Assembly (NCBI RefSeq): GCF_020144665.1
Contig: NZ_JAAHBQ010000020.1
Span: 50,640-85,419 of the forward strand
Direction of reading: 5' to 3'
Source: Oscillatoria salina IIICB1
Lineage (GTDB): Bacteria > Cyanobacteriota > Cyanobacteriia > Cyanobacteriales > SIO1D9
Length of the DNA stretch: 34,780 nucleotides
Shown here: in pieces, positions 3,260 to 27,494 of the stretch
How positions within the stretch are numbered: position 1 is the first letter of the stretch
How the letters are laid out: the number at the start of each line of letters is the position of its first letter
Made by a program: the position numbers and the translations under genes
The notes under the pieces: generated by a model
Databases searched by the model: none
Told to the model about the DNA's origin: nothing
Seen by the model: the letters and a program-made list of their open reading frames with translations, nothing else

Positions 3260-4450
3260 TTACCTCGCGGTTTCCTCAACTGTCCAGTGATGGGGAGGAC
3301 AAATAATCCCTTTTTCTTCTTTGGCTGCACGAATTGACAACGGATAAACCTGCCAGTGATAATCGTAGGTAGAAGCCCAATTTTGCTCGTAAGCCCCCAC
3401 ATCTATATAATATTGTCCGGCATTTAAGTCAAGTCTCTCAAGATAGAGTTTAATTCGTCCTTTTCTGGCAATTTGCAGCGATAACTCTGTTGCTGATGTG
3501 TGAGTATCGTAGCAAACTAAACCATCTACACGACTAATTTTTACCCCAAAAATTGGGTTATTAATCTCTTCGTTAGCCCGGTATTCAAGAATTATTGCTA
3601 AAAAAGTTCCACAATCGATTGCTGTTACTAACTCTCCAGCTAGATTCAATAAATTAACTTCAATTATTTCTAATTTTAAGGAACCAAAACGATTTTTCCC
3701 AATGCTTAACTCGCTTATCTCTGTAGTGGTGACAGCCGGATTTTGTTCTTTGATTTGCTGTTGAGTATCTTTGTCTATTTGAGGAATTTTACTCAGATAA
3801 ATTTGCGGATGAACTATTGACAATTGAGCCAAACTAGTATCTTTAATTTCCGCAGCTAAGCGAGGATACTGGGAGAGAGAATTTCCTGGCAAAAAAACTA
3901 GCAGATTTTGTGCGTACCAAGGTTCAATTCGCGGATTATCCCAAATCTTTCTGCGCAAACAATCTATTACTTGAAAACCACGCTGTTGAAACAATTTTAA
4001 CCAATAATCTGCCCATTGTTCGTTAAGATGTTCCGTTCCTCCTTGATAAGGTATAGCCGCAGAGAAAACAATAATTTCTCCTAGTTTAGTCAGAGAATCT
4101 ATGAAAATTTCCGCGTCTGATTCGGGGAGATGTTCGGCTACTTCTAAAGACAAGACCAAATCGAAGGTTTTGTCAAGATGTAAAGGCTGTTTTAAATCTT
4201 TAGCTAAGAATTTTTCTGGAGAGATTTGTAACATTTCTGGTTTGAGATAATCTCCATCGATTCCTAAATATTCAGTAATCCCATTTTCGGCAAAAACCGA
4301 TAACCAAGTTCCATCACCGCAGCCAACATCGACAACAGTTTGCGGTTGAATTAAATCTAAAAGTAAAGGAACAATTTCTCTGGCTGATTGAAGAGAACCT
4401 GCTTGTAATTCTGTAAAAAATTCTTGGTTATAAGGAGTTGGGGATGACAT
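3260..4450 (-). CDS. SAM-dependent methyltransferase fused to a Wzt C-terminal-type glycan-binding domain
   Basis: 396 residues. The N-terminal half is a class I methyltransferase: motif I is VVDVGCGDG (residues 39-47), the acidic end of strand 2 is GIDGD, and LSLEVAEHLPE (about 100-110) is typical of family 11/23 methyltransferases. Residues about 248-390 match, almost module for module, the C-terminal domain of the Wzt encoded two genes upstream: NRFGS, NPIFGVKI, LERLDLNAGQYYIDVG, YDYHWQVYPL, and a final PPxHW. In Wzt this beta-sandwich recognises the end of the glycan to be exported. The gene is last in the operon, starting 2 nt after the glycoside hydrolase stop. Inference: it methylates the non-reducing end or residues of the exported glycan, with its own binding module docking on the substrate. 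The methyl acceptor (O or C) is not readable from sequence. Confidence 0.9.
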   Translation of the reverse strand: MSSPTPYNQEFFTELQAGSLQSAREIVPLLLDLIQPQTVVDVGCGDGTWLSVFAENGITEYLGIDGDYLKPEMLQISPEKFLAKDLKQPLHLDKTFDLVLSLEVAEHLPESDAEIFIDSLTKLGEIIVFSAAIPYQGGTEHLNEQWADYWLKLFQQRGFQVIDCLRRKIWDNPRIEPWYAQNLLVFLPGNSLSQYPRLAAEIKDTSLAQLSIVHPQIYLSKIPQIDKDTQQQIKEQNPAVTTTEISELSIGKNRFGSLKLEIIEVNLLNLAGELVTAIDCGTFLAIILEYRANEEINNPIFGVKISRVDGLVCYDTHTSATELSLQIARKGRIKLYLERLDLNAGQYYIDVGAYEQNWASTYDYHWQVYPLSIRAAKEEKGIICPPHHWTVEETAR

Positions 4451-4452
4451 AA

Positions 4453-5880
4453 TTAATTGGCACCTATTTTAACTAAAATTGCTGCTTGACTGGGAACAGT
4501 CAAATTAACTTGACCTTGAGTAATATTTGTGCTATTAACTATTTCGTCTCGGTGTTGTTGACTAAATTCCCAAATTGTGCCAATTCCCTCGGTGAAAAAG
4601 TCAGAAAAATCGGCATTAATAGGATAAGATTCTTGACTACTATTAATCACAAGGAGATAAATATCGCTGTTATTATCTTGAGTTGCAATCGCTATTAAAT
4701 CGCTGTTGCTAGTGGAAGTTACCCAGGTTTTTTTCCCTCCTTGTAAGCCGCGTATTCCCATTCGTAAAGCATAATAACCGAGACTGCGTTTTCCCTCGGC
4801 GGAAATGAGTCCGCGATATATTCCTGACTGTCCCCAATCGTAGAGGGAAAAAACATGACTACCGTAAATATAATTATCGCCCGGAAGAGAACCACGCAGC
4901 AAATTTTTTATTAAATTAAGCGCGAAATCTAGATTTTCGTAATCAGTTTGATAAGTTCCCCATTCACCTAACCAAATTGGCGAGTTAGCATGAATAGTGG
5001 AATTCATCCAAGTATGTACTTGCTGAGTATAAACAGAAATATCGGCTTGGTAATCATGAATATTAATACTGTCGAAATAAGTCGGGATTTGCTGTAAAGC
5101 GTCGAGTACCCAAGTGCTATTTTCTATGGTGACAGGGGCGTGGATGTGATAGTTTCTGTTAGGTAAATAATTTTTGTAGACAAAATCAAGAGCATCTTTG
5201 GCTACTTTTACCAATTCAAAATAATCAGCTTGGTTTCCTCCCCAACCTTGAGGACGATTATCAGGTTCGTTATGAATTTCAAACTCGTCAACTTGATAAT
5301 CATTGCGGACATTTAACCAATAAACTGTGGCAAAAATATGTTCCCACCATTCATTCCAATCTGCTTCATTTCGGGGTGGATTGAGTTGTAATGCCCAGGA
5401 GGGATTCCAAGCGTCATCGGTGTTGCGTAGAGTTACAACTGGGCGAATATTTGCTTGTTTTAACTGACTAAAAATTGTTCTGGCGTTACCTTGCCAAGTG
5501 TCATTTCCTGACCACCAATAGTCGCTGTTATTTGGTGGTTCGGTCATAATTTTGTCCCACCAATCCCAGTTGATAATGTTAGGATTAGCTTTAATTTCGC
5601 TAATTGTTGGTTGTCCGTAGATACCGTCATCGTCTTCTGCTTCCCAACGGGACATTCCGCCATAAATCCGATAAGTATTGATGCCTAAATCTTGTAAATC
5701 TTTGATGTCAAAGTTGACGTTACCTTCGACAGCGCCAATGTAGCGGGTACTAACGCCCATTGGTTGCTTAGAAATTGCAATAGTTACTAGGTTTTGGGCG
5801 TTGACATGAAGAAATGAGTTGAGAAGTATGTAGGTTAAAATACCTGTTAAAAAAAGTAGCAATAACTTTTTGAAGTACAT
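4453..5880 (-). CDS. Secreted clan GH-A glycoside hydrolase (GH39/PslG-like) of the polysaccharide operon
   Basis: 475 residues. The N-terminus has two Lys, a hydrophobic core (LLLLFLTGILTYILL) and a polar end near residue 29 (VNAQN), so it is a signal peptide or an uncleaved membrane anchor. The body is a TIM-barrel glycosidase of clan GH-A: EIHNEPD gives the acid/base Glu205 with the typical Asn-Glu-Pro, and WLGEWGTY gives the probable nucleophile Glu306. A C-terminal beta-domain (about 390-475) follows. The gene starts 12 nt after the wzt stop and ends 2 nt before the methyltransferase. Exported GH-A enzymes in exopolysaccharide operons (PslG is the known example) trim or clear polymer in the periplasm. 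Inference: this one acts on the glycan made by the same operon. The exact GH family is uncertain. Confidence 0.85.
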   Translation of the reverse strand: MYFKKLLLLFLTGILTYILLNSFLHVNAQNLVTIAISKQPMGVSTRYIGAVEGNVNFDIKDLQDLGINTYRIYGGMSRWEAEDDDGIYGQPTISEIKANPNIINWDWWDKIMTEPPNNSDYWWSGNDTWQGNARTIFSQLKQANIRPVVTLRNTDDAWNPSWALQLNPPRNEADWNEWWEHIFATVYWLNVRNDYQVDEFEIHNEPDNRPQGWGGNQADYFELVKVAKDALDFVYKNYLPNRNYHIHAPVTIENSTWVLDALQQIPTYFDSINIHDYQADISVYTQQVHTWMNSTIHANSPIWLGEWGTYQTDYENLDFALNLIKNLLRGSLPGDNYIYGSHVFSLYDWGQSGIYRGLISAEGKRSLGYYALRMGIRGLQGGKKTWVTSTSNSDLIAIATQDNNSDIYLLVINSSQESYPINADFSDFFTEGIGTIWEFSQQHRDEIVNSTNITQGQVNLTVPSQAAILVKIGAN

Positions 5881-5892
5881 TTGAGTTGAGAT

Positions 5893-7131
5893 TTAGCGTT
5901 GGACTAATGAGGGAGAAAATTCCCAATGTTGGGGTGGGTTGAGAAAGCCTTTTTTGCTGATGCTAGAGTTAATTAAGAGGGGATAAACGCGCCAATGATA
6001 GTCATAAGCGTAAGCCCATTTTTGTTCGTAAATTCCAACGTCAATAAAGTATTTGCCACCATTTAAGTCTAAGCGTTCGAGGTGGAGTTGAATCTGTCCG
6101 TTGGTAGAAATTTCTGGTAAAGTTAAATTCATGGCTTCGGTGTTGGTATCGAGACAGGTTTGTCCGTCTTCGCTATTAATGGTTACGCCAAAAATAGGTG
6201 CAGAAATGGTTTGGTTGGGTTGATATTCGATGGAGATTGTGAGAGATTCGCCGCTTTTTATTTCAGGTTGTGGTAAAATACGGACATCGATGATTTCAAT
6301 TTCTTGGGAACCGAAACGATTTTCATTGACTCGCAATTCTACGCCGGATTTGGTAAACTGAGGTGGTTTGGGGGGAGTGAGTTTTTGGGTTTGGGAAATC
6401 ATTTCGCTTTTGTATTGTCCGGTAACTATTTCTGGTTCCCCATAAGCGACGATTTTACCTTGTTTGAGCCAAAGGGCGCGATCGCATAACTCCTCGATTT
6501 GTTCGGGACTGTGAGATATTAAGACTATGGCGCATCCTTGGGCTTTTAATTGGGAAATTCTCTCTAAACATTTGGCTTGAAACGCTAAGTCCCCCACGGA
6601 AAGAAATTCATCGACTAACATTATTTGGGGATTTGTATACACGGCTACAGAAAATGCTAACCGCATCTGCATTCCTGTACTATAAGTGCGGACGGGATTA
6701 TCGATAAAATCGTTTAACTCGGCAAATTCGACAATATCTGCAAAACGTCTGGTGACTTGCTGACGAGTTAAACCTGCAACGACACCTGTGACAAAGACAT
6801 TTTCTCTTCCGGTTAAGTCAGGAGAGAAACCCGCACCTAAATCCAGTAATGCTCCGATTCTACCATTAACTTTCACTCTTCCCGCATCAGGACGAGTAAC
6901 GCCGCCGATAAGTTGTAGTAAAGTTGACTTACCTGCACCATTATGACCGATAATTCCCAACATTTCCCCAGGAGACACGGTAAAACTGATATCTTGCAAC
7001 GCCCAAAAACGTTCCACTGCTTGCATTCGTCTTAACCCAGACAGCGCTGCTTCCATAATTGTACGCGGTCGGTCGGCATGATAGCGAGTGTAGCGTTTGC
7101 CCAGTTTGCGGACAATAATAGCATCTTTCAT
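5893..7131 (-). CDS. wzt: ABC transporter ATPase Wzt with C-terminal glycan-binding domain
   Basis: ATG at 7131 (MKDAIIVRKL, 412 residues) is chosen because AGGAG precedes it and it overlaps the wzm stop as ATGA; the open frame further upstream is just wzm read out of frame. ATPase features are Walker A GHNGAGKST (62-70), an extended Q-loop region, signature YSTGMQMRL (150-158), Walker B IMLVDE (170-175) and the switch His207. After a linker, residues about 265-405 form the Wzt-type C-terminal domain (NRFGS, SAPIFGVTI, LERLDLNGGKYFIDVG, YDYHWRVYPL). With Wzm it forms the inner-membrane exporter of lipid-linked polysaccharide, such as O-antigen or a capsule-like glycan. The C-terminal domain is known in O9a-type systems to recognise the chain terminus. 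It shares this domain with the methyltransferase at 3260-4450. Confidence 0.95.
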   Translation of the reverse strand: MKDAIIVRKLGKRYTRYHADRPRTIMEAALSGLRRMQAVERFWALQDISFTVSPGEMLGIIGHNGAGKSTLLQLIGGVTRPDAGRVKVNGRIGALLDLGAGFSPDLTGRENVFVTGVVAGLTRQQVTRRFADIVEFAELNDFIDNPVRTYSTGMQMRLAFSVAVYTNPQIMLVDEFLSVGDLAFQAKCLERISQLKAQGCAIVLISHSPEQIEELCDRALWLKQGKIVAYGEPEIVTGQYKSEMISQTQKLTPPKPPQFTKSGVELRVNENRFGSQEIEIIDVRILPQPEIKSGESLTISIEYQPNQTISAPIFGVTINSEDGQTCLDTNTEAMNLTLPEISTNGQIQLHLERLDLNGGKYFIDVGIYEQKWAYAYDYHWRVYPLLINSSISKKGFLNPPQHWEFSPSLVQR

Positions 7132-7916
7132 AACTCCTCTACAAAGCGATCGCTCTGGACGCGAAAAATATACAGTCCCACAGGTAAAAATATTACTGTG
7201 GCTATTCCTATAATTAGCAAAGCTTGCCAATCTGGTGCAGTGCCGTAAATTAAAATATTACGATAAGCGGTGATGAGATGTACCATCGGATTAAGGTTAT
7301 ATAAAGGTAAATATTTGGCGGGTACGTTGTCAATTTGATAGAAAATTGGCGTGAGATAAAAAAATAGTTGTAACAATACGCCTAGGGTATGTTGGGTATC
7401 GCGAAAAGTTACATTAATGGCTGCTAAGATATAGGCCAAACTGACGGTGAGTAAAAATTGAATTGTTTGCAAGATGGGCAGGAAAAATACTATTAGTTTT
7501 AACTCGACATTATCGATGAGGAGAAAGACGATTAAAACTGGGAGGGCGAGAAGAAAGTGAATTAAACCTGTGGTGGTAATTACTATTGGTAAAATTCCTT
7601 TGGGAAAACCGGGTTGGCGAATTAAGGGACGATTGGCGATAATTGCCCCAGTTGCTTGAAATAAGGAATTTTGGAACCACGTCCAAACTAATAAACCTGT
7701 AAAAACATAAGATGAGTATTGGGGGATGTCTATGGCGAGGACTAATTTAAAAATAAAGACGAAAACTGCTAGTTGGAGGAGGGGGTTAATTAATGTCCAA
7801 GCGATTCCTAAAAGCGAACGTTTGTAGAGTAGTTTTATGTCTCGACTTACTAATTCTCTGAGTAAGTCGTAAAGGTAGGTTAGTCGCCATTTGGGTGAGG
7901 TTTGGGGTGATTTCAT
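7128..7916 (-). CDS. wzm: ABC-2 type polysaccharide exporter permease Wzm
   Basis: The real start is ATG at 7916 (MKSPQTSPKW, 262 residues). The frame extends to 8438, but that part overlaps the upstream glycosyltransferase in another frame and gives low-complexity Arg/Leu-rich sequence. The protein has an amphipathic N-terminus with the family motif YDLLRELVSRDIKLLYKRSLLGIAWTLINPLLQ region (residues about 15-47), then about six hydrophobic helices. The reentrant part QLFFYLTPIFY is typical of ABC-2 permeases. It pairs with Wzt through an ATGA stop/start overlap, which implies translational coupling and equal stoichiometry. It moves undecaprenyl- or other lipid-linked glycan across the inner membrane. 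The RBS before 7916 is weak. The 32 nt between the upstream stop and this start contain the short interspersed cyanobacterial word CGCAAAGACGCAAAGG on the complementary strand. Confidence 0.94.
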   Translation of the reverse strand: MKSPQTSPKWRLTYLYDLLRELVSRDIKLLYKRSLLGIAWTLINPLLQLAVFVFIFKLVLAIDIPQYSSYVFTGLLVWTWFQNSLFQATGAIIANRPLIRQPGFPKGILPIVITTTGLIHFLLALPVLIVFLLIDNVELKLIVFFLPILQTIQFLLTVSLAYILAAINVTFRDTQHTLGVLLQLFFYLTPIFYQIDNVPAKYLPLYNLNPMVHLITAYRNILIYGTAPDWQALLIIGIATVIFLPVGLYIFRVQSDRFVEEL

Positions 7917-7948: not shown

Positions 7949-10540
7949 CTAAGGGGTTTGGGATGAGGTTCTTCCTTGTTGGTTTACTCTTTGATATGAT
8001 TGCCAAAGTGCTAAGGGTCCGAGGATGTTTCCAGTTATTTCCAGTAAAGATAGGGAAATGGGATAATCGTTCCAGCCTCGGAGTCGGTGGTAAATGCGTT
8101 TGAGGTGGTAGCCGGGGAGGTAGAAGAATAAGTTGGGTAGTACGCGCCAGTCGCGATCGCGTAATAATGTTGTTAGTTGATAGGATACGAAGCCTTTTGA
8201 GTAGTTGTAGAGTTGGCGGCGTAATGCTGACATATCTTGACGGTGGCGATGCCAAACATAGGCTGCTGGTTCGTAGATAATTGTATAGCCTGCTTTGAGG
8301 ATTTTGTAGAATAAATAAATGTCTTCGCCGACTCCCGAAGGCATTCCCGGACCGAGGGTTTCGTCCATTAAACCGATTTCTGGGTCGTGGAAGATTTTCG
8401 CACGAAAGGCGGCATTGGCTGTACCGCCTAATTCCCAAGTCGGCACTACGTGCAATGGCGATCGCTCAAACCATTCGCTACTTACTTCAAAATACTCGAA
8501 ACCGCGCCCTAAACCACCATATTTTTCAAATAATTTTTGGGATTCGGTATCTAATTTTAAAGGTAGAATGTTCCCAGTGATACAGATTACGTCGGCGCGG
8601 CTGAATTTCGCGATTAAATTTTCTAGCCAGTCTTTCGGCATGGTAACGTCGTCGTCGGTGGTAACGATAATTTCGCCACTACTCGCTAAAATGCCTGCGT
8701 TACGCGCGTAAGCTACTCCTTGACGGGCTTCGCTAACTAATTTGACTTTAGGAAATTCGGCGACGACTGGGGGGGTGATACCGGAGTCGGGATGGTTATC
8801 GACGACAATGATTTCTACCGGGTGGGGGGAGTTTTGCGCGACTAAGCAGTTTAAGCAGTTACGCAAGTCTTTCGGGCGATCGTAGGTTCCGACTAAAATT
8901 GAAACGGAAACGTGGGCTGGTAATTTGGTGTTTGCTGCGGCTTTTTTCGGTTGATAATGTTGCTGTAAGGTTGTTACTGCTTGACTCCAGAGTAAATCTT
9001 GACTGATTTGAGCAGATCCTGCGAGTAATTTTAAACCGAGATTAGTTACAATTGCTTCAATTAAGCGAGTTGTGCTAATTATTTGGTAATTGTTGGTGAT
9101 GTCTGCGCTACCGAGAGGTTTGCCTTCCCAAGTACAAAAAATATGCACGCTTTGGTAGTTGGTTATCTGGGTTAAGGGTTGAATTGCTTGTGTTAACTCG
9201 ATTGTGACGACACCAGTTTGGTTTGTTTGCCAATTGTCGTTTTGAGGATTTTCCCTAGGGACGCGATCGGGGATAAAATTACCTTGAGTTGCGATAATTT
9301 GGGCTAAATTTTTCTTGGCTTGGGGATAGCGAATTAAACCAATCAAACAACCGCGCAATTCTGCCCAAATCAACTCTCGTGGAAACTGCGTTGGATGCAA
9401 CAACGATATTAATAAACGCTTACAATGCCAAGTTAATAACCAAGTTATACCCAAACGAACAAAAGAAAGTAATTCTTCTGGATACGCCATTATTGCACAA
9501 ACAAAATAAGAGAAAACGCTACCGTTATTAATAAGTTGTTTTTTCAGTTGATTGTATTCTCGGCGGTGACGGTGGCGAATTAAGGCTTTTGGTTCGTAAA
9601 CTAAGGGATGTCCGGCTTTTAAAATGCGAAAAAACATTTCTAAATCGCCAGCTCCATTAGTAATGGTTCCAACATCTAAAGCGGGATCGAAATAACCCAC
9701 TTGCTCAAAAATTTGACGGCGATAAGCCATATTTGCACCAGTACCAAAGTTACCTGTTCCTAATAAATACCAAGGTATTTTTTCTCCTTGTTTAACTCGA
9801 TACCACTTGGTTGCAAAACCTTTACCAAAACCACCTTGTTTCTCAAATAAAATTTGCGCTTCTGTTTCCAGTTCGTAGGGGACAACTAAGCCTGTAACTG
9901 CCATTACTTCGGGGTTTTTAAGAAATACTCGAACTAAGTTTTTTACCCAATCCGAATCGACAATTACATCGTCATCAGTATAAGCAATTATTTCCCCTTT
10001 TGCTTCAACAATCGCCCGATTTCTTGCCCAGTCTAAACCGGGACGAGGTTCGCAAACGTAGCGATATTGAGGATATTTGTCTTTGACTAAATTTTGGGTG
10101 GCGTCGTTACTAGGGGCGTTGTCAACTATTAAGATGTCTAAATTGGGATAGTCTAGTTTAGTAATTGCTGATAAACATAAATCTAAATCTGTTGCGCGAT
10201 CGCGGCTACAAATTGCTACTGTTATTAAAGGTGATTCTCCCTCATTTTCTGCTGGTTTGATCTCAAATAAATCTTCTAAACGTAAACTATTTAGGTGGAT
10301 TTTTGTCGCTAAACCATTCTGCAATAAATGTTGGATAATTGTCCAACTGTGTTCCTGTAAAATTATTTTACTTATCGTTTCTGCTGGACAAATATCGTTA
10401 GTAATTGGTAAATCTACATAGCCAATTGGTACGTTATGCAAACGCACTAATCCTTTGATTGCTTTGTAACCTTCTAAACCGACAATAGTTTCTAAAGGAC
10501 GGTTTAATTCAATGTCAACAACCTTGATTGGATACAACAT
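7949..10540 (-). CDS. Two-domain GT2 family glycosyltransferase (internally duplicated)
   Basis: 863 residues from ATG at 10540, preceded by AGGA; a TTG one codon upstream is the less likely start. There are two GT-A glycosyltransferase 2 domains. Domain 1 (about 104-350) starts ITVAICSRDRATDL and has YTDDDV for the metal site, then GAGDLEMFFRI and HRHRR. Domain 2 (about 550-800) starts VSVSILVGTYDRPKDL and has TTDDDV, then GVGEDIYLFYKI and HRHRQ. Each is preceded by a similar ~90-residue non-catalytic segment (VDIELNRPLETI... against VTIELTQAIQPL..., both with PIGYVD/PLGSAD and ITN), so the whole unit is duplicated. Both metal motifs are intact, suggesting two active transferases adding two sugars of a repeat or linker. 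It sits between the single GT2 gene (13-nt gap) and wzm. Acceptor and donor cannot be read. Confidence 0.92.
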   Translation of the reverse strand: MLYPIKVVDIELNRPLETIVGLEGYKAIKGLVRLHNVPIGYVDLPITNDICPAETISKIILQEHSWTIIQHLLQNGLATKIHLNSLRLEDLFEIKPAENEGESPLITVAICSRDRATDLDLCLSAITKLDYPNLDILIVDNAPSNDATQNLVKDKYPQYRYVCEPRPGLDWARNRAIVEAKGEIIAYTDDDVIVDSDWVKNLVRVFLKNPEVMAVTGLVVPYELETEAQILFEKQGGFGKGFATKWYRVKQGEKIPWYLLGTGNFGTGANMAYRRQIFEQVGYFDPALDVGTITNGAGDLEMFFRILKAGHPLVYEPKALIRHRHRREYNQLKKQLINNGSVFSYFVCAIMAYPEELLSFVRLGITWLLTWHCKRLLISLLHPTQFPRELIWAELRGCLIGLIRYPQAKKNLAQIIATQGNFIPDRVPRENPQNDNWQTNQTGVVTIELTQAIQPLTQITNYQSVHIFCTWEGKPLGSADITNNYQIISTTRLIEAIVTNLGLKLLAGSAQISQDLLWSQAVTTLQQHYQPKKAAANTKLPAHVSVSILVGTYDRPKDLRNCLNCLVAQNSPHPVEIIVVDNHPDSGITPPVVAEFPKVKLVSEARQGVAYARNAGILASSGEIIVTTDDDVTMPKDWLENLIAKFSRADVICITGNILPLKLDTESQKLFEKYGGLGRGFEYFEVSSEWFERSPLHVVPTWELGGTANAAFRAKIFHDPEIGLMDETLGPGMPSGVGEDIYLFYKILKAGYTIIYEPAAYVWHRHRQDMSALRRQLYNYSKGFVSYQLTTLLRDRDWRVLPNLFFYLPGYHLKRIYHRLRGWNDYPISLSLLEITGNILGPLALWQSYQRVNQQGRTSSQTP

Positions 10541-10553
10541 CAACTATTTTTCC

Positions 10554-11654
10554 TTATAACATTAGCAGCAAGCGGTGCAAGCTATTTCCTACTAACAGTT
10601 TGAATTGTATACTTAGGTATTTTTTTTGTAAATCTGTTAGCTTAATGCGGCGTTTTTTGACTTTATTTTGTTTGGGTAATTCGGGAGAGTAAGGTTTCTT
10701 GCCAAACCAAATTTCCCTAATTTTTTTACTTGCAATAAATAAAATACTTTTGCTTGCCATTATATACAAACCGTAGCGAAAAATTGGTGTCAAGGGATCG
10801 ATTTTTACAGATTTATACAGCCAAAATAAAGTTTCCCCATGTTTGCCAAAATTACTACTTTGTCTCGCGAGATACATATAAAAACTACTGCTAGACAAGC
10901 GATACAAAGTGCCAGAAATTTCTGGGTGTTTGGTGCGAAAATCTTCTAACATTAAACTGTGAGATTTTGCCATACCGCTATAGTTACGAGACATACTGCC
11001 TTGTATTTTACGATAACCGATCAGAAATTCTGGCACAACCAGAAATTGATAACATTCGGCAATGCGTAAATATAAATCCCAATCTTCGCATCCTTGAGCA
11101 TTTTTGGCTTTTAATTCCGTGCTATAACCGCCAACTTTGTCGAAACAAGTTTTGCGAATTAAAGTCGCACTTGAATTGCCAATAAAATTATGGCATAATA
11201 GAGTTTTATAGACATTTCCTTCAATTTGGGCAGCGCGAAAATCTCCGGTGGGTAAGTTATTTTCATTGATATCGATCGACCAAGAATAAACTAAACCCAC
11301 TGATGAATTAGCATTGGCTAATAATTGTACTTGCTTGGCAATATTTTCCGGATACCAGATGTCATCTGCATCGATGGGAGCAATAAATTCTCCTTGTGCA
11401 TGAGCGATCGCTAAATTTCTGGCTGCGGCTACACCAGCATTTTCTTGTTGTAACAAGATCGCGCGATCGTCTCGCATAACAAAATCTTGGACAATTGCTG
11501 CGGTGCGATCGCTGGAACCATCATCAACAACGATAACTTCTAGATTAAGATAAGTTTGGGAGAGAACGGAAATCAAAGTTCGTTCGATAAAAAGTTCTGC
11601 ATTATAAGCAGGAATAATGACGGAAACTAAAGGCGACAGATGACGAATATTCAT
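10554..11654 (-). CDS. GT2 family glycosyltransferase
   Basis: 366 residues. The N-terminal GT-A domain (about 8-215) has the classical start VSVIIPAYNAELFIERTL, then the nucleotide-binding VVVDDGSSD region (Asp-Asp at about 42-43), the metal-binding PIDADDIW motif, and the GCEDWDLYLRI acidic pair that usually provides the catalytic base. The C-terminal 150 residues are Lys-rich and weakly conserved, with one hydrophobic stretch (FRYGLYIMASKSILFIAS) that could touch the membrane. It starts 20 nt after galE stops and ends 13 nt before the double glycosyltransferase. It likely transfers a hexose or amino sugar onto the lipid-linked glycan at the cytoplasmic face. Sugar specificity is unknown. 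Confidence 0.93.
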   Translation of the reverse strand: MNIRHLSPLVSVIIPAYNAELFIERTLISVLSQTYLNLEVIVVDDGSSDRTAAIVQDFVMRDDRAILLQQENAGVAAARNLAIAHAQGEFIAPIDADDIWYPENIAKQVQLLANANSSVGLVYSWSIDINENNLPTGDFRAAQIEGNVYKTLLCHNFIGNSSATLIRKTCFDKVGGYSTELKAKNAQGCEDWDLYLRIAECYQFLVVPEFLIGYRKIQGSMSRNYSGMAKSHSLMLEDFRTKHPEISGTLYRLSSSSFYMYLARQSSNFGKHGETLFWLYKSVKIDPLTPIFRYGLYIMASKSILFIASKKIREIWFGKKPYSPELPKQNKVKKRRIKLTDLQKKYLSIQFKLLVGNSLHRLLLML

Positions 11655-11674: not shown

Positions 11675-12703
11675 CTAATATTTATGTGAGTTAGTTAAAG
11701 AAGGTAAACCGTGGCGTTTTTGATGCCAATTCCAAGCATGAGTTATCATTTCTTTTAGATGGGGATATTCAGGTTGCCAACCGAGGATTTGGTAAGCTTT
11801 CTCAGCACTACCGACTAAAATAGCGGGATCTCCGGGACGGCGATCGCATTTAATCGTCTCGATCTTATTTCCCGTTACCTCTTTTGCTGTCTCAATGACT
11901 TCTCGCACCGAGAAACCACTACCATTACCCAAATTAAAGACTTGACTTTGATTTTCTTTTCGCAGATACTCTAAGCCGAGCAAGTGCGCCCTAGCGATAT
12001 CCACCACATGAATGTAGTCGCGGACACAAGTGCCATCAGGTGTGGGATAATCAGTACCGTAGAGACTAATTGCCTCGCGCTTACCCAACGCTGTCAGCAA
12101 CACCAAAGGAATTAAATGAGCTTCGGGTGAATGATCTTCTCCCAATTTCCCTGTCGGATCTGCCCCAGCCGCATTAAAATAACGGAAACAAACATATTTC
12201 AAATCGTAAGCACGGTCAAAATCTGCTAAGATTTTTTCGACCATCAATTTGCTAATTCCATAAGGATTGATTGGGTTTTGTACGCAATCTTCTGTAATCG
12301 GGACTATTTCAGGTATACCGTAAGTAGCACAAGTAGAAGAAAATACGAATTTCTTTACCCCGGCTGCTATCATTGCTGACAAAAGTGCTAACGTTCCGGC
12401 GACATTATTCTGGTAATATTTAGCAGGATTAACTACCGACTCTCCTACATAACCATAAGCCGCAAAGTGCATGACGGCTGTTACAGAATAAGTAGTAAAA
12501 ATTTCGTTTAATAACTGGCGATCGCTGATATCTCCAACAATTAATTTAGCTTGTAAAACATTTTCAACTAAATCGCGATGTCCATATACCAGGTTATCCA
12601 GGATAATTACCTCATAACCTTGCTGTTGCAACGTCTGCACCGCATGGGAGCCAATATATCCCGCTCCCCCCGTCACTAAAATTGTTGGCTGTTCTTGCTT
12701 CAT
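11675..12703 (-). CDS. galE: UDP-glucose 4-epimerase GalE
   Basis: 342 residues from ATG at 12703 (MKQEQPTILV), preceded by AAAGAG; in-frame GTG and TTG codons up to 12724 allow a slightly longer form. This is an extended SDR protein: NAD-binding TGGAGYIGSH (11-20), the Ser/Thr of FSSTCATYG (122-130), catalytic Tyr148 and Lys152 in PYGISK, and the family signatures FRYFNAAGADP and GDGTCVRDYIHV-type PDGTCVRDYIHVVD. It interconverts UDP-glucose and UDP-galactose (possibly the N-acetyl forms) and so supplies UDP-galactose to the downstream glycosyltransferases. It is the first gene of the seven-gene minus-strand operon. Confidence 0.96.
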   Translation of the reverse strand: MKQEQPTILVTGGAGYIGSHAVQTLQQQGYEVIILDNLVYGHRDLVENVLQAKLIVGDISDRQLLNEIFTTYSVTAVMHFAAYGYVGESVVNPAKYYQNNVAGTLALLSAMIAAGVKKFVFSSTCATYGIPEIVPITEDCVQNPINPYGISKLMVEKILADFDRAYDLKYVCFRYFNAAGADPTGKLGEDHSPEAHLIPLVLLTALGKREAISLYGTDYPTPDGTCVRDYIHVVDIARAHLLGLEYLRKENQSQVFNLGNGSGFSVREVIETAKEVTGNKIETIKCDRRPGDPAILVGSAEKAYQILGWQPEYPHLKEMITHAWNWHQKRHGLPSLTNSHKY

Positions 12704-13217
12704 TTTACTCTTTGTCAGCACCAAACTACGATTTTTTTTCCAGTCTTAGTATAGTCAACACTTTGTCCAGTTTATTTTCCGAATATCTTGACCAAATCTT
12801 CAAATATACACGCAAAATTAAAGTTATTTTGCAACTGTCAACCGAACTATGCTAGAAGAATTACGCATTTCGATAGTTACAGAAAGGTATAATAAGTTTT
12901 CTTGTTCATTATTTTTCTGTAGTATTTCCCTACACAAGTTATTTATTTTCTTCAAGACTAATATATGACAATTTCATTGAGAAGTATGTGCTTGCGGTCA
13001 CAAATTATTCTTTCCTCAGAAATTAATTGTTAACTATTAAATACTAAGTTGCGTCCCGACATAGTGTCCTTGCAAGGTGATAATAATCTAGAAAAATGTC
13101 GTCCTTTGCGAAGCGAAGGATGAGGAAAGATGAAATGAAGCTGCATTTGACGATAATAATTACTACAGCTAATTTCAGTTTTGATAGTGAGGGCTGAAGC
13201 CCTCACTACAAACTAAT
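12704..13217. other. Intergenic region upstream of the polysaccharide operon
   Basis: No gene was seen here. On the minus strand a TATACT hexamer (12748-12753) about 45 nt before the galE ATG could be the -10 box of the operon, but the matching -35 is poor. At 13099-13124 a hairpin-forming word (TCCTTTGCGAAGCGAAGGA) resembles small cyanobacterial interspersed repeats. The hairpin at 13185-13208 is listed separately. The remainder is AT-rich without obvious structure. Confidence 0.45.
13185..13208 (-). terminator. Hairpin downstream of NDH-2; member of the GAGG-type interspersed repeat
   Basis: TAGTGAGGGC-TGAA-GCCCTCACTA is a perfect 10-bp stem with a 4-nt loop, 9 nt beyond the NDH-2 stop codon. 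No T-run follows in the direction of that gene, so factor-independent termination would be weak. The core (TAGTGAGG...CCTCA) is the same family as the tandem units at 15.2-15.8 kb, so it may simply be a dispersed repeat. Confidence 0.5.
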
Positions 13218-19230: not shown

Positions 19231-20211
19231 TTAGTCGCGATCGCCAGAAAATCTAGCTAACAAATCCTCACGGGATAACTGTAAAATCAAACGGGTATAC
19301 TCTTGGGGAGGTAATGCTAACAAAGCATCAACTATTTGTAAAATCGACTCGTCACGAAAACCAAAACGAACTTGTAACAAGTTTTCAATTACTAAACGTT
19401 GTCCTTGTAAGCTTCCTTGTTGAATTCCTTGTTGAACACCTTGTTGAATTCCTTGTTGAACACCTTGTTGAATACCTTGTTGAACACCTTGTTGAATTCC
19501 TTCGTTAAGGGTAGCTTCACGCCACTGAAGGTAAGCTGGTGATAAATTCATAATTAACTCCCGATCTTCATCAGTTAAATTTTCCCTCATTTGTAAATTA
19601 ATACGCCAGTTAGCAATAAGTTCCAGAGTATTGACACGCAATAAATTTGCTTTCGGTAAGGCAATTAACTCACTAATTGCTTGTTGCTGAGTCGTACCTT
19701 TTCCCAGAATTCTCAGCCATAAGGTTTCTGGTACAGTTGGTAACTGGTTAATCGCGACTACTGCTGTCTTGAGTGCCTCAGCGAGGAAGTACACTCCTCG
19801 ACACCAGTTTTCTAGTTCTAGTTTAGCGCCAAAAGTCTCAATTAGGTTACTAGAAGCTGAAGTAGCTAAAATCCAAAGCCGGGGTAATTCGGTTTCGCTG
19901 AGAGTGCGATTTTCCCGTCTAGCTTGGCGCTGAAATTCGCTTTGTAGTTGCAAAAGCTTCAGCAAACAACTACGAATTTCGGTTTGGCTGGGTTGGTTGC
20001 GGAAAGGTTCGAGTAAACAAGGAAAAGATGCGAGTCTACCGAGTAAACCCAGAGTTTGAGGTTCGGCTGTTGGGGTAGCGGAGGGCGCAAAATAAAGGTC
20101 AATTTGGCGTACTTCTCCTGGTACTTCTTTGCTAATTTCTACTGTACCTAGGGAAGCGAGCAGTTCGGTTAAATATTGTTTCGCAAATTGGTCATGGGGT
20201 TGTCTGGTCAT
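19231..20211 (-). CDS. Rpn-like PD-(D/E)XK family protein with Gln/Gly repeat tail
   Basis: 326 residues. The N-terminal region (MTRQPHDQFAKQYLTELL, then EVPGEVRQIDLYFAP) resembles the Rpn/transposase_31-like PD-(D/E)XK nuclease family common in cyanobacteria, with Asp in QIDLYF as the likely metal ligand. The usual downstream ExK is not obvious, so activity is uncertain. A linker leads to MNLSPAYLQW, then a tract of alternating GIQQGVQQG units (about 232-265), and a C-terminal DUF4351-like domain (QRLVIENLLQVRFG... LLARF). It is 28 nt downstream of the PilC-like gene. Known Rpn proteins promote recombination or act in phage defence; a role here is inference. Its 3' third has been duplicated in tandem downstream. 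Confidence 0.7.
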   Translation of the reverse strand: MTRQPHDQFAKQYLTELLASLGTVEISKEVPGEVRQIDLYFAPSATPTAEPQTLGLLGRLASFPCLLEPFRNQPSQTEIRSCLLKLLQLQSEFQRQARRENRTLSETELPRLWILATSASSNLIETFGAKLELENWCRGVYFLAEALKTAVVAINQLPTVPETLWLRILGKGTTQQQAISELIALPKANLLRVNTLELIANWRINLQMRENLTDEDRELIMNLSPAYLQWREATLNEGIQQGVQQGIQQGVQQGIQQGVQQGIQQGSLQGQRLVIENLLQVRFGFRDESILQIVDALLALPPQEYTRLILQLSREDLLARFSGDRD

Positions 20212-26499: not shown

Positions 26500-26790
26500 A
26501 TGACAAAGATTAATATAGCAAAGGAAGCCGCTTTATCCAAAAATTTAGAGATTGTAGAAGAATTGCTCGAAAAAGATAACTTATTCAAAAATTTAAACAA
26601 AAATGAATTAAGGAAAATATTTACTCAAACTTTAGATGAAGTATCTCCAGAAGAAATTATTTCTCTCGATAACGAAGATTTGAGAACAAGAGTTGATAGA
26701 ATAATGGCAATTGAATTATTATCGGGAATGTTAGATGATTTGACTCCAGAGGAAATAGAAATCTTTGATGCTGCGGTAAAAGGAAAATAA
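26500..26790 (+). CDS. Small helical protein, candidate antitoxin (paralog 1 of 3)
   Basis: 96 residues (MTKINIAKEAALSKNLEIVE...), strongly charged and predicted all-helical. It is one of three tandem paralogs sharing the pattern KE-x2-LS-x4-IVE near the start and a C-terminal E-x-EIFDAxVxGK. This copy is the most diverged, with NLFKNLNKNEL where the others have SDPxxQER. GGAAG stands 6-7 nt before the ATG. The three lie directly upstream of a VapC-type toxin remnant, where antitoxin genes normally sit, so an antitoxin role is inferred; no AbrB, Phd or RHH DNA-binding domain is recognisable. Composition is more AT-rich than neighbouring housekeeping genes. Confidence 0.7.
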   Translation: MTKINIAKEAALSKNLEIVEELLEKDNLFKNLNKNELRKIFTQTLDEVSPEEIISLDNEDLRTRVDRIMAIELLSGMLDDLTPEEIEIFDAAVKGK

Positions 26791-26855
26791 ATATCTATTT
26801 TATTTGTATAGTTAAACACTATAACTCAATTTAAAGTTAGCACTAGGAGGAAATT

Positions 26856-27149
26856 ATGGAAAAAACTACTGTCGAAAAAGAATTAGCTTTATCTCGAATT
26901 TTGCAAATTGTTGAACAAATAATGGAAAGCGATCCTTGGTTTCAGGAAAGACTAAAGAAAAACGAAATTATGCAAGTAATGAATAGCTTGTTTAATAGTG
27001 TTTCTCCAGAGGAAACACTCAAAATAGATTTAGAAGATTTAACTAAGAAAATTAGTAAGATTATGACTTTAGAAGCAACCGCAGGAACTTTAAATGAATT
27101 AAGTTCAGAACAAATAGAAATCTTCGATGCTTTCGTAGAAGGAAAATAG
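26856..27149 (+). CDS. Small helical protein, candidate antitoxin (paralog 2 of 3)
   Basis: 97 residues (MEKTTVEKELALSRILQIVE...). Consensus AGGAGG lies 5 nt before the ATG. It shares with paralog 3 the VEKE-x2-LSR-x-L-x-IVE start, the SDPxxQER turn, and GTLNEL-x2-EQ-x-EIF near the end, finishing VEGK. Predicted all-helical with no cysteine and no signal peptide. The 65-nt gap after paralog 1 has no duplicated promoter, so paralogs 1 and 2 may be one transcript. Function is inferred only from its position ahead of the PIN toxin remnant. Confidence 0.72.
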   Translation: MEKTTVEKELALSRILQIVEQIMESDPWFQERLKKNEIMQVMNSLFNSVSPEETLKIDLEDLTKKISKIMTLEATAGTLNELSSEQIEIFDAFVEGK

Positions 27150-27165
27150 CTGTTAATTTTATTGC

Positions 27166-27171
27166 TATAAT
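27166..27171 (+). promoter_or_regulatory. Duplicated extended -10 promoter before paralog 3
   Basis: TGCTATAAT (27163-27171) in the word CTGTTAATTTTATTGCTATAATGA is the copy of the element at 26462. It starts only a few bases past the stop of paralog 2, and would drive paralog 3 together with the PIN toxin gene. Confidence 0.5.
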
Positions 27172-27200
27172 GATAAGAGCTACATAAATAGGAGGAATTT

Positions 27201-27494
27201 ATGACAAAAATTACTGTAGAGAAAGAAGTAGTCTTATCCAGACTCTTGGAAATTGTCGAAAAATTAATGCAAAGCGATCCCTTTCTTCAGGAAAGAATAG
27301 ATAAGACAAAACTAAGCCAAATTTTAGCTCAAGCTTTAGATAAAGTATCGCTTGAAGAACTGATTTATTTGTCAGAAAAAGAACTTATAAAAATAGTTAA
27401 TAAAATTATGGTAAGACAAGCTGTATCTGGAACATTAAATGAGTTAGATCGAGAGCAAAAAGAAATTTTTGAAGTAATTGTAGAAGGAAAATAG
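27201..27494 (+). CDS. Small helical protein, candidate cognate VapC antitoxin (paralog 3 of 3)
   Basis: 97 residues (MTKITVEKEVVLSRLLEIVE...). AGGAGG stands about 6 nt ahead of the ATG. It is closest in sequence to paralog 2. The stop is 8 nt before the ATG of the PIN-domain gene, the close spacing usual for antitoxin and toxin pairs, so this is the best candidate for the cognate antitoxin. Predicted helical throughout; in type II systems the C-terminal helix usually wraps the toxin active site, and here the conserved EIFEVIVEGK tail could do that. No DNA-binding motif was recognised. Confidence 0.75.
   Translation: MTKITVEKEVVLSRLLEIVEKLMQSDPFLQERIDKTKLSQILAQALDKVSLEELIYLSEKELIKIVNKIMVRQAVSGTLNELDREQKEIFEVIVEGK

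What the first reader, a model, noticed from the sequence alone, without database searches (positions are those of the whole stretch)
3260..4450. Methyltransferase carries the same C-terminal glycan-binding domain as the Wzt of its own operon
Seen: residues about 248-390 of the methyltransferase and about 265-405 of Wzt share NRFGS, PIFGV, LERLDLN-G-YxIDVG, YDYHW-VYPL and PP-HW. Known: in O9a-type systems the Wzt C-terminal domain recognises a chain end modified by a separate terminator enzyme (WbdD). Inference: here the modifying enzyme holds its own copy of the reader domain, so the writer and the exporter recognise the same glycan end. This could be a compact chain-termination and export checkpoint in cyanobacteria.
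Basis: partly seen in the sequence, partly recalled or inferred. Interest (0 to 1): 0.62.

Follow-up and report, generated by a model that had tools for sequence, protein, structure and literature searches.

The report
Methyltransferase carrying the exporter's sugar-reading domain
In several groups of cyanobacteria, the enzyme that probably methylates a surface sugar chain carries the same kind of sugar-binding domain that the chain's export pump uses, which suggests that finishing the chain and letting it out are linked.

Summary
The window's methyltransferase (MT) ends in a Wzt_C domain (Pfam 77.4 bits, cut-off 30.4) that is 51% identical to that of the Wzt in its own operon. It is not a one-off: 11 more of 388 class genomes sampled carry an orthologous MT-Wzt_C protein. 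In 9 of 9 with contig upstream it lies downstream of a wzm-wzt pair of the same subfamily; in 9 of 11 the next gene is the same exported GH-A-like hydrolase. The 12 fused MT domains form one clade (98/94) against 55 MTs without Wzt_C, so the fusion probably arose once and was kept.

The domain belongs to the exporter's own subfamily, and the Trp that stacks on the methyl cap in Aquifex Wzt is kept in 12 of 12. But another ligand contact (Asn313) is Asn in 2 of 12 MT-linked against 39 of 49 Wzt domains, and the nine other MT-linked domains with their Wzt at hand are not closest to it. So the MT's reader probably holds a related glycan end, not shown to be the identical one. Best reading: a glycan O-methyltransferase that caps or licenses the chain. 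Nearest precedent: a predicted CBM in Klebsiella O7 ORF6. New variant of a known kind.

The parts
3260..4450 (-). MT-Wzt_C fusion protein, 396 aa
   Evidence: Single open frame; Pfam Methyltransf_23 and Wzt_C; AlphaFold2 model with two domains and a low-confidence linker
3842..4426 (-). Class I SAM-dependent methyltransferase domain, about residues 9-203
   Evidence: Pfam Methyltransf_23/25/12/11; 51 of 56 columns invariant in 7 unfused relatives are kept; fold matches to sugar methyltransferases CalS10 (Z 15.4) and TylM1 (Z 15.2)
3305..3697 (-). Wzt_C (carbohydrate-binding) domain of the MT, residues 252-382
   Evidence: Pfam Wzt_C 1.4e-21; Z 15.6, rmsd 2.0 over 124 residues to Aquifex Wzt CBD 6o14
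4453..5880 (-). Exported GH-A-like glycoside hydrolase, 475 aa
   Evidence: N-terminal hydrophobic segment in the sequence; HNEPD and GEWG motifs in 12 of 12 homologues compared; only sub-threshold GH39/GH79 Pfam hits in two of five homologues scanned; fold not established (model pLDDT 40.8)
5893..7131 (-). wzt, export ATPase with C-terminal Wzt_C
   Evidence: ABC_tran 2e-24 and Wzt_C 7.1e-25; Aquifex WzmWzt 8dku E 2.8e-66; 4-base overlap with wzm
5944..6327 (-). Wzt_C domain of Wzt, residues 269-396
7128..7916 (-). wzm, export permease, 262 aa from an internal ATG
   Evidence: ABC2_membrane 3.1e-13; start placed
7949..10543 (-). Double GT2 glycosyltransferase, 864 aa
   Evidence: Two Glycos_transf_2 stretches; homologues next to wzm in many related operons
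10554..11654 (-). GT2 glycosyltransferase
   Evidence: Pfam Glycos_transf_2 9.7e-37
11675..12724 (-). galE-like NAD-dependent sugar epimerase
   Evidence: Pfam Epimerase 7.1e-62

Best explanation
The protein is a SAM-dependent glycan O-methyltransferase that works on the lipid-linked chain made by the neighbouring GT2 enzymes and exported by Wzm-Wzt. Its C-terminal Wzt_C domain, taken from this Wzt subfamily in one ancient fusion, holds the non-reducing end of the chain near the active site. Methylation caps the end; the Wzt_C of the exporter then reads the capped end and lets the chain out. Shown here: the fusion, a single origin of the fused MT clade, its conservation, its operon, intact MT motifs and a predicted Wzt_C fold. 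Inferred: that it binds glycan, that it methylates the chain end, and that the cap licenses export.
For: Wzt_C membership and fold. Twelve of the 60 subfamily CBM rows found in 388 class genomes are the fusion, window included. Both Pfam domains are above cut-off in 10 of 10 further fusions scanned. The fused MTs are one clade, 98/94, and none of the 55 other MT frames holds a Wzt_C match at E <= 0.01. In 9 of 9 fusions with upstream contig, wzm and wzt of the same subfamily lie upstream, directly in 7 and a few genes away in 2. Distances of the MT domain correlate with those of its own CBM (r 0.91) and of the Wzt ATPase domain (r 0.80) over 10 operons. The gene after wzt in related operons is often another chain-modifying enzyme: FkbM or Methyltransf_24 MTs, GT2-MT-deacetylase, sulfotransferase-deacetylase. 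In Microcoleus-type genomes a sulfotransferase domain is fused onto Wzt itself. Literature: Aquifex Wzt CBD binds 3-O-methyl-mannose, not mannose (PMC9445017, section 9 and passages). In Synechocystis, deleting an operon-linked MT (slr1610) gave a phenotype nearly identical to deleting the Wzm and Wzt homologues (PMC3769361, passages). The Trp over the methyl pocket is W in 12 of 12 MT-linked domains.
Against: Asn313-equivalent is Asn in only 2 of 12 MT-linked domains against 39 of 49 Wzt domains (Fisher 9e-5, not corrected for kinship). In the window, the Leu300-equivalent is Lys304 in the MT and Thr in Wzt. Nine of 10 MT-linked domains with their own Wzt at hand are not closest to it. No extended coiled-coil is modelled in the protein (longest modelled helix 25 residues), although the Klebsiella terminator systems discussed in PMC11231755 have one (Discussion part 1). 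The glycan of this operon is unknown. Most wzt genes of the subfamily seen here are not accompanied by the fusion, and some are followed by genes with no obvious capping role (PMT-like, acyltransferase, beta-lactamase-like). In Synechocystis the paper reports no difference in purified O-antigen and links the phenotype to exopolysaccharide, and whether slr1610 is related to this MT was not tested.
Confidence: 0.5

Rival explanations
1. The domain is a docking part, not mainly a sugar reader. Wzt_C domains pair by swapping C-terminal strands, so the MT's copy could pair with a Wzt copy and park the methyltransferase on the exporter.
For: Wzt CBDs are strand-exchanged dimers (PMC9445017 Introduction passage). 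The window pair is 51% identical. In Microcoleus-type genomes a sulfotransferase domain is covalently fused to Wzt, the same coupling by other means. Retained fold but a changed ligand contact.
Against: In 9 of the 10 operons where both domains are at hand they are only 29-37% identical, so a conserved hetero-pair is less likely there. No complex was modelled. Trp of the sugar pocket is kept in 12 of 12.
Confidence: 0.18
2. The MT methylates sugars along the chain or on side residues; its domain only keeps it on the polymer. It does not set chain length or license export.
For: CBMs on carbohydrate enzymes are used to recruit substrate (stated in PMC11231755 section 11, passage). The contact that helps fix the ligand in Aquifex Wzt is variable in the MT-linked set. 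No coiled-coil ruler in the protein.
Against: The Wzt_C domains described in the passages read bind chain ends, not inner residues (PMC9445017, PMC11231755). Tight pairing with CBM-type wzt.
Confidence: 0.22
3. The domain is a leftover of duplication inside the operon with no present role.
For: The MT-linked domains diverge faster (mean pairwise identity 37% against 51% for Wzt domains in the same 10 operons).
Against: One fusion kept across several families of the class, with core pocket Trp in 12 of 12 and Gly in 11 of 12; both domains above cut-off in 10 of 10 scanned.
Confidence: 0.05

Closest known systems
Klebsiella pneumoniae O7 ORF6 terminator (methyltransferase-kinase; PMC11231755)
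   Same: Methyltransferase in a wzm-wzt operon with an additional predicted CBM; [quoted passage not shown]
   Different: ORF6 also has a kinase, a coiled-coil and two GT2 modules, and its CBM was described only as an immunoglobulin-like fold. Whether it is Wzt_C was not tested here. The present protein is MT plus Wzt_C only, and its CBM is kin of the exporter's.
E. coli O9a/O8 WbdD with Wzt (recalled, partly from passages of PMC11231755 and PMC9445017)
   Same: Methyltransferase plus exporter with a CBM that recognises the capped end.
   Different: WbdD carries a kinase (O9a) and a coiled-coil ruler and no CBM; here no kinase or long helix is seen in the MT, and it has its own reader.
Aquifex aeolicus WzmWzt (8dku, 8dky; PMC9445017)
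   Same: Wzt_C fold; methyl-sugar cap; stacking Trp conserved in the MT-linked domains.
   Different: In Aquifex the domain is on the ATPase; the word methyltransferase does not occur in that paper's main text, so its capping enzyme is not described there.
MTs of the same family without Wzt_C in cyanobacteria, Pseudomonadota and one Marivirga
   Same: Same MT family (30-57% identical).
   Different: No Wzt_C in 55 of 55 compared; they fall outside the fused clade.

Membership tests
Wzt_C domain (PF14524) | Score above the curated cut-off | tested here: met
   77.4 bits against 30.4; 10 of 10 further fusions scanned are above it (33-48 bits)
Wzt_C domain (PF14524) | Beta-sandwich of the Wzt CBD type | tested here: met
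   Z 15.6, rmsd 2.0, 124 aligned to 6o14; also 8dky, 5hno, 2r5o; ten-residue mean pLDDT 54-84 in 261-396
Wzt_C domain (PF14524) | Cap-binding residues of Aquifex CBD | tested here: inconclusive
   Trp kept 12/12, Gly at Ala348 11/12, aromatic at His350 12/12; Asn313 equivalent Asn in 2/12. Mapping rests on a profile alignment
Wzt_C domain (PF14524) | Binds glycan | not testable with these tools
   needs binding assay
Wzt (export ATPase) | ABC ATPase domain in the same protein | tested here: not met
   No ABC_tran in P0001; it is not a Wzt
WbdD-type chain terminator | SAM methyltransferase in a wzm-wzt operon whose Wzt has a CBM | tested here: met
WbdD-type chain terminator | Kinase domain (O9a type) | tested here: not met
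   No kinase family in P0001 at E <= 1
WbdD-type chain terminator | Extended coiled-coil ruler | tested here: not met
   No long helix in the model of P0001; linker 205-257 is low confidence. Other operon proteins were not tested for a ruler
WbdD-type chain terminator | Stops polymerisation by capping the non-reducing end | not testable with these tools
   needs mutant and glycan analysis
Class I SAM methyltransferase | Fold and SAM motif | tested here: met
   Pfam; CalS10 Z 15.4, TylM1 Z 15.2; 51 of 56 family-invariant columns kept

The most novel reading that the evidence does not exclude
A capping-export complex: the methyltransferase and the exporter carry related reader domains that pair or hand the chain end from one to the other. 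Cyanobacteria would have built such writer-reader coupling at least twice, once as MT-Wzt_C beside Wzt and once as a Wzt-Wzt_C-sulfotransferase fusion.
Probability: 0.25. Interest if true: 0.8.

Novelty: new variant of a known kind. Interest (0 to 1): 0.6.

Why it matters
How a bacterium makes sure that only finished surface chains are exported rests on a few models in which the enzyme that caps the chain and the pump that reads the cap are separate. A conserved enzyme with the pump's own kind of reader domain gives a simple protein in which capping, end recognition and hand-over can be taken apart. It would also say something about cyanobacterial surface glycans, whose chain ends are, as far as I know, little studied, and gives a marker (MT-Wzt_C, or Wzt-sulfotransferase) for predicting methylated or sulfated chain ends.

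Tried and rejected
I first believed the fusion to be unique to this genome. P0001 against 386 phylum genomes (mostly at most 4 candidates scored per genome), a mixed profile against 388 order genomes (at most 6 scored in the rows shown) and a named-genome scan (6 loci) gave no second MT-Wzt_C, and 91 distinct fetched Wzt_C places in the relatives (own Wzt included) were all ABC-linked. The CBM profile in a class-wide sample (at most 9 scored in the rows shown, E <= 1e-15) overturned that: the 11 other carriers are 'same class', not same order, and bear handles that first appear, so they were not in the earlier samples. P0001 in 299 genomes of the phylum of G671 (Pseudomonadota, recalled from the order named in the title of L084) matched 18 genomes, none with both domains; the one CBM-only match lies in an ABC-linked 420-aa frame. 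A plasmid search with the CBM gave 4 places, all annotated as ABC ATP-binding proteins.

Intra-operon gene conversion or independent fusions: the 61-row CBM tree puts MT-linked domains in three places (3 changes, at least 2 forced by starred branches), but one clade is not rejected (log-likelihood 19.2 lower, p-AU 0.18), while the MT tree shows one clade. I therefore do not claim domain replacement. Left out of the 61-row CBM tree: near copies L086, L087, L088, L047; the far rows L058 (G082) and L120; stretches under 121 residues; L254 (G999), whose ABC and CBM lie in different frames. The 18-row tree that held L058 and L120 and a 16-row tree were unresolved around the window's domain. The MT tree holds matches at E <= 1e-25 over more than 150 query residues, with identical cores once.

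Fold of the GH neighbour: no PDB sequence match with its profile at E <= 0.1, no NCBIfam family, single-sequence model unusable (pLDDT 40.8). The VIA-align list was filled largely by MT rows, so absence of other folds is not claimed.

Paper searches. Among their listings and the passages I read, no paper describes an MT-Wzt_C or Wzt-sulfotransferase protein; the library lacks most subscription papers, and read 'Wzt_C' as one word and returned nothing.

Full report
OBSERVATION. The ORF at 3260-4450 (-) encodes 396 aa. Its residues 252-382 match Pfam Wzt_C with 77.4 bits (cut-off 30.4) and residues 25-115 match Methyltransf_23. The operon's Wzt (5893-7131 -, 412 aa) matches ABC_tran and, at 269-396, Wzt_C. 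The two C-terminal domains are 51% identical (74 of 146 columns; BLASTP E 1e-46). No other copy exists in the genome at E <= 0.001.

SURROUNDINGS. On the minus strand lie galE-like, GT2, double GT2, wzm, wzt, a hydrolase and MT-Wzt_C, with gaps of 20, 10, 32, -4, 12 and 2 bases, so they look like one transcription unit (inference). After the MT there are 475 bases before the next ORF. The hydrolase has an N-terminal hydrophobic stretch and HNEPD and GEWG motifs, as in clan GH-A enzymes (motif meaning recalled); no Pfam family reaches its cut-off and no NCBIfam family matches the window copy.

STRUCTURE. AlphaFold2 with an 8-row alignment gives an MT domain (ten-residue mean pLDDT mostly 71-96, with a dip near 133-145), a low-confidence linker at about 205-257 and a beta-sandwich (54-84). 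The sandwich matches the Aquifex Wzt carbohydrate-binding domain (6o14, Z 15.6, rmsd 2.0 over 124 residues), that of the O-12 Wzt (5hno) and 2r5o. The MT part matches sugar methyltransferases such as CalS10 (Z 15.4) and TylM1 (Z 15.2). The MT keeps 51 of 56 columns that are invariant in seven unfused relatives.

IS IT A ONE-OFF? At first it seemed so. In 100 relatives the Wzt_C search listed 116 rows (my count): one is this MT, 95 places that I checked are ABC-linked (91, where one place was read twice, and four more), and 20 rows were not examined. P0001 against 386 phylum genomes found no second fusion (matched frames with a locus were classified). But the subfamily profile in 388 class genomes hit 48 genomes with 60 rows. 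Reading these loci, 12 rows are MT-Wzt_C (the window and 11 others), 47 are ABC-linked in one frame, and one (G999) has its ABC and CBM in different frames. Pfam gives Wzt_C and Methyltransf_23 above their cut-offs in 10 of 10 other fusions scanned (the eleventh, L253, was not scanned with Pfam).

CONSERVED OPERON. Of the 11 other fusions, seven (L240-L246) follow wzt directly and two (L247, L248) lie a few genes downstream of it; in L250 and L253 the contig begins inside the fusion. In nine of the 11 the GH-A-like gene is the next gene, and the order is MT then GH; in the window it is GH then MT. HNEPD and GEWG are kept in 12 of 12 GH proteins compared. Genome G062 holds a broken GH-MT remnant in the window's order; its MT stops being recognisable before the place of the CBM, so it does not tell whether it was fused.

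ORIGIN. In a tree of 67 MT domains the 12 fused ones are one side of a branch, 98/94, against 55 others, none of which has a Wzt_C match in its frame (0 of 55 at E <= 0.01): one fusion is the simplest account. In a 61-row CBM tree the MT-linked domains fall in a group of nine, a pair, and the window's alone among Wzt domains, but holding all 12 together is not rejected (p-AU 0.18), nor is pairing the window's MT domain with its own Wzt (p-AU 0.52) or with the pair (p-AU 0.51). Short domains cannot settle this. Distances agree between MT and its CBM (r 0.91), MT and the Wzt ATPase domain (0.80), and the two CBMs (0.80) over 10 operons (Mantel p 0.0002 each), as expected if they travel together; part of that is shared species history.

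DO BOTH READ THE SAME END? Aquifex CBD holds 3-O-methyl-mannose with Ile299, Leu300, Asn313, Thr346, Ala348, His350 and Trp362 among others (PMC9445017 section 9). By profile alignment the window's MT has V, K, H, D, G, Y, W and its Wzt V, T, N, D, G, Y, W. Across the sets, Trp is W in 12 of 12 MT-linked and 43 of 49 Wzt-linked domains; the Asn position is N in 2 of 12 and 39 of 49 (Fisher 9e-5, kinship not corrected). So the pocket floor is shared but a specific contact is not. The MT's reader may hold the acceptor end before methylation, or a related end; 'the same end' is not shown.

MECHANISM. The gene after wzt in this subfamily is often a chain-modifying enzyme: FkbM MTs (L252, L255, L271, L274) and Methyltransf_24 MTs (L264, L281, and L273 as the second ORF), a TPR-Methyltransf_24 protein (L270), GT2-MT-deacetylase (L066, L260, and L259 after an acyltransferase), sulfotransferase-deacetylase (L068, L070). 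It is not universal: others have PMT-like transferases (L067, L247, L248, L268, L280), an acyltransferase (L277), a beta-lactamase-like protein (L069), or no close gene on that strand (L261, L263). In Microcoleus-type genomes Wzt itself bears a 278-residue tail (seven sequences), identified as a sulfotransferase domain in the one scanned. With the Synechocystis result that loss of an operon-linked methyltransferase gave nearly the same phenotype as loss of the Wzm and Wzt homologues (PMC3769361, passages; I did not test whether slr1610 is related), I think a capping or licensing MT is most likely (0.5), a general chain methylase next (0.22), and docking to Wzt through the domain third (0.18).

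KNOWN OR NEW. The nearest precedent is Klebsiella O7 ORF6, an MT-kinase terminator with a predicted immunoglobulin-like CBM; [quoted passage not shown] The present protein differs in having no kinase or GT and no long coiled-coil in its model, and in that its CBM is kin to the exporter's. I did not find it described in the listings and passages seen. I rate it a new variant of a known kind.

Noticed in passing
L071:8190-10262 (-), L068, L072, L085-L088: Wzt of Microcoleus-type genomes is a 690-aa ABC + Wzt_C protein with a 278-aa tail; in L071 the tail is a sulfotransferase domain (Pfam Sulfotransfer_1 1.5e-13), and seven tails align. A writer fused to the exporter.
   Followed up: partly
4453-5880: Exported GH-A-like hydrolase without a Pfam family above cut-off or an NCBIfam match, adjacent to MT-Wzt_C in 9 of 11 other genomes and also found away from wzm-wzt in Microcoleus-type genomes; perhaps an unnamed hydrolase family.
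   Followed up: partly
L064:459-1484: Decayed GH and MT remnant in genome G062, same order as in the window, giving way to other sequence after about MT residue 117.
   Followed up: partly
L262:5541-8136 and L264: wzt followed by the GH gene directly (L262), or by a Methyltransf_24 MT and then the GH (L264), without MT-Wzt_C.
   Followed up: no
26500-27494: Three + strand ORFs of 96, 97 and 97 aa in a row, possibly tandem copies.
   Followed up: no
19231-20211: 326-aa protein with a repeated QGVQQGIQ stretch.
   Followed up: no
L036-L039, L077:7051-10317: MTs of the same family inside frames of about 1000-1100 aa; the L077 protein has a further MT domain and a GT2 domain.
   Followed up: no
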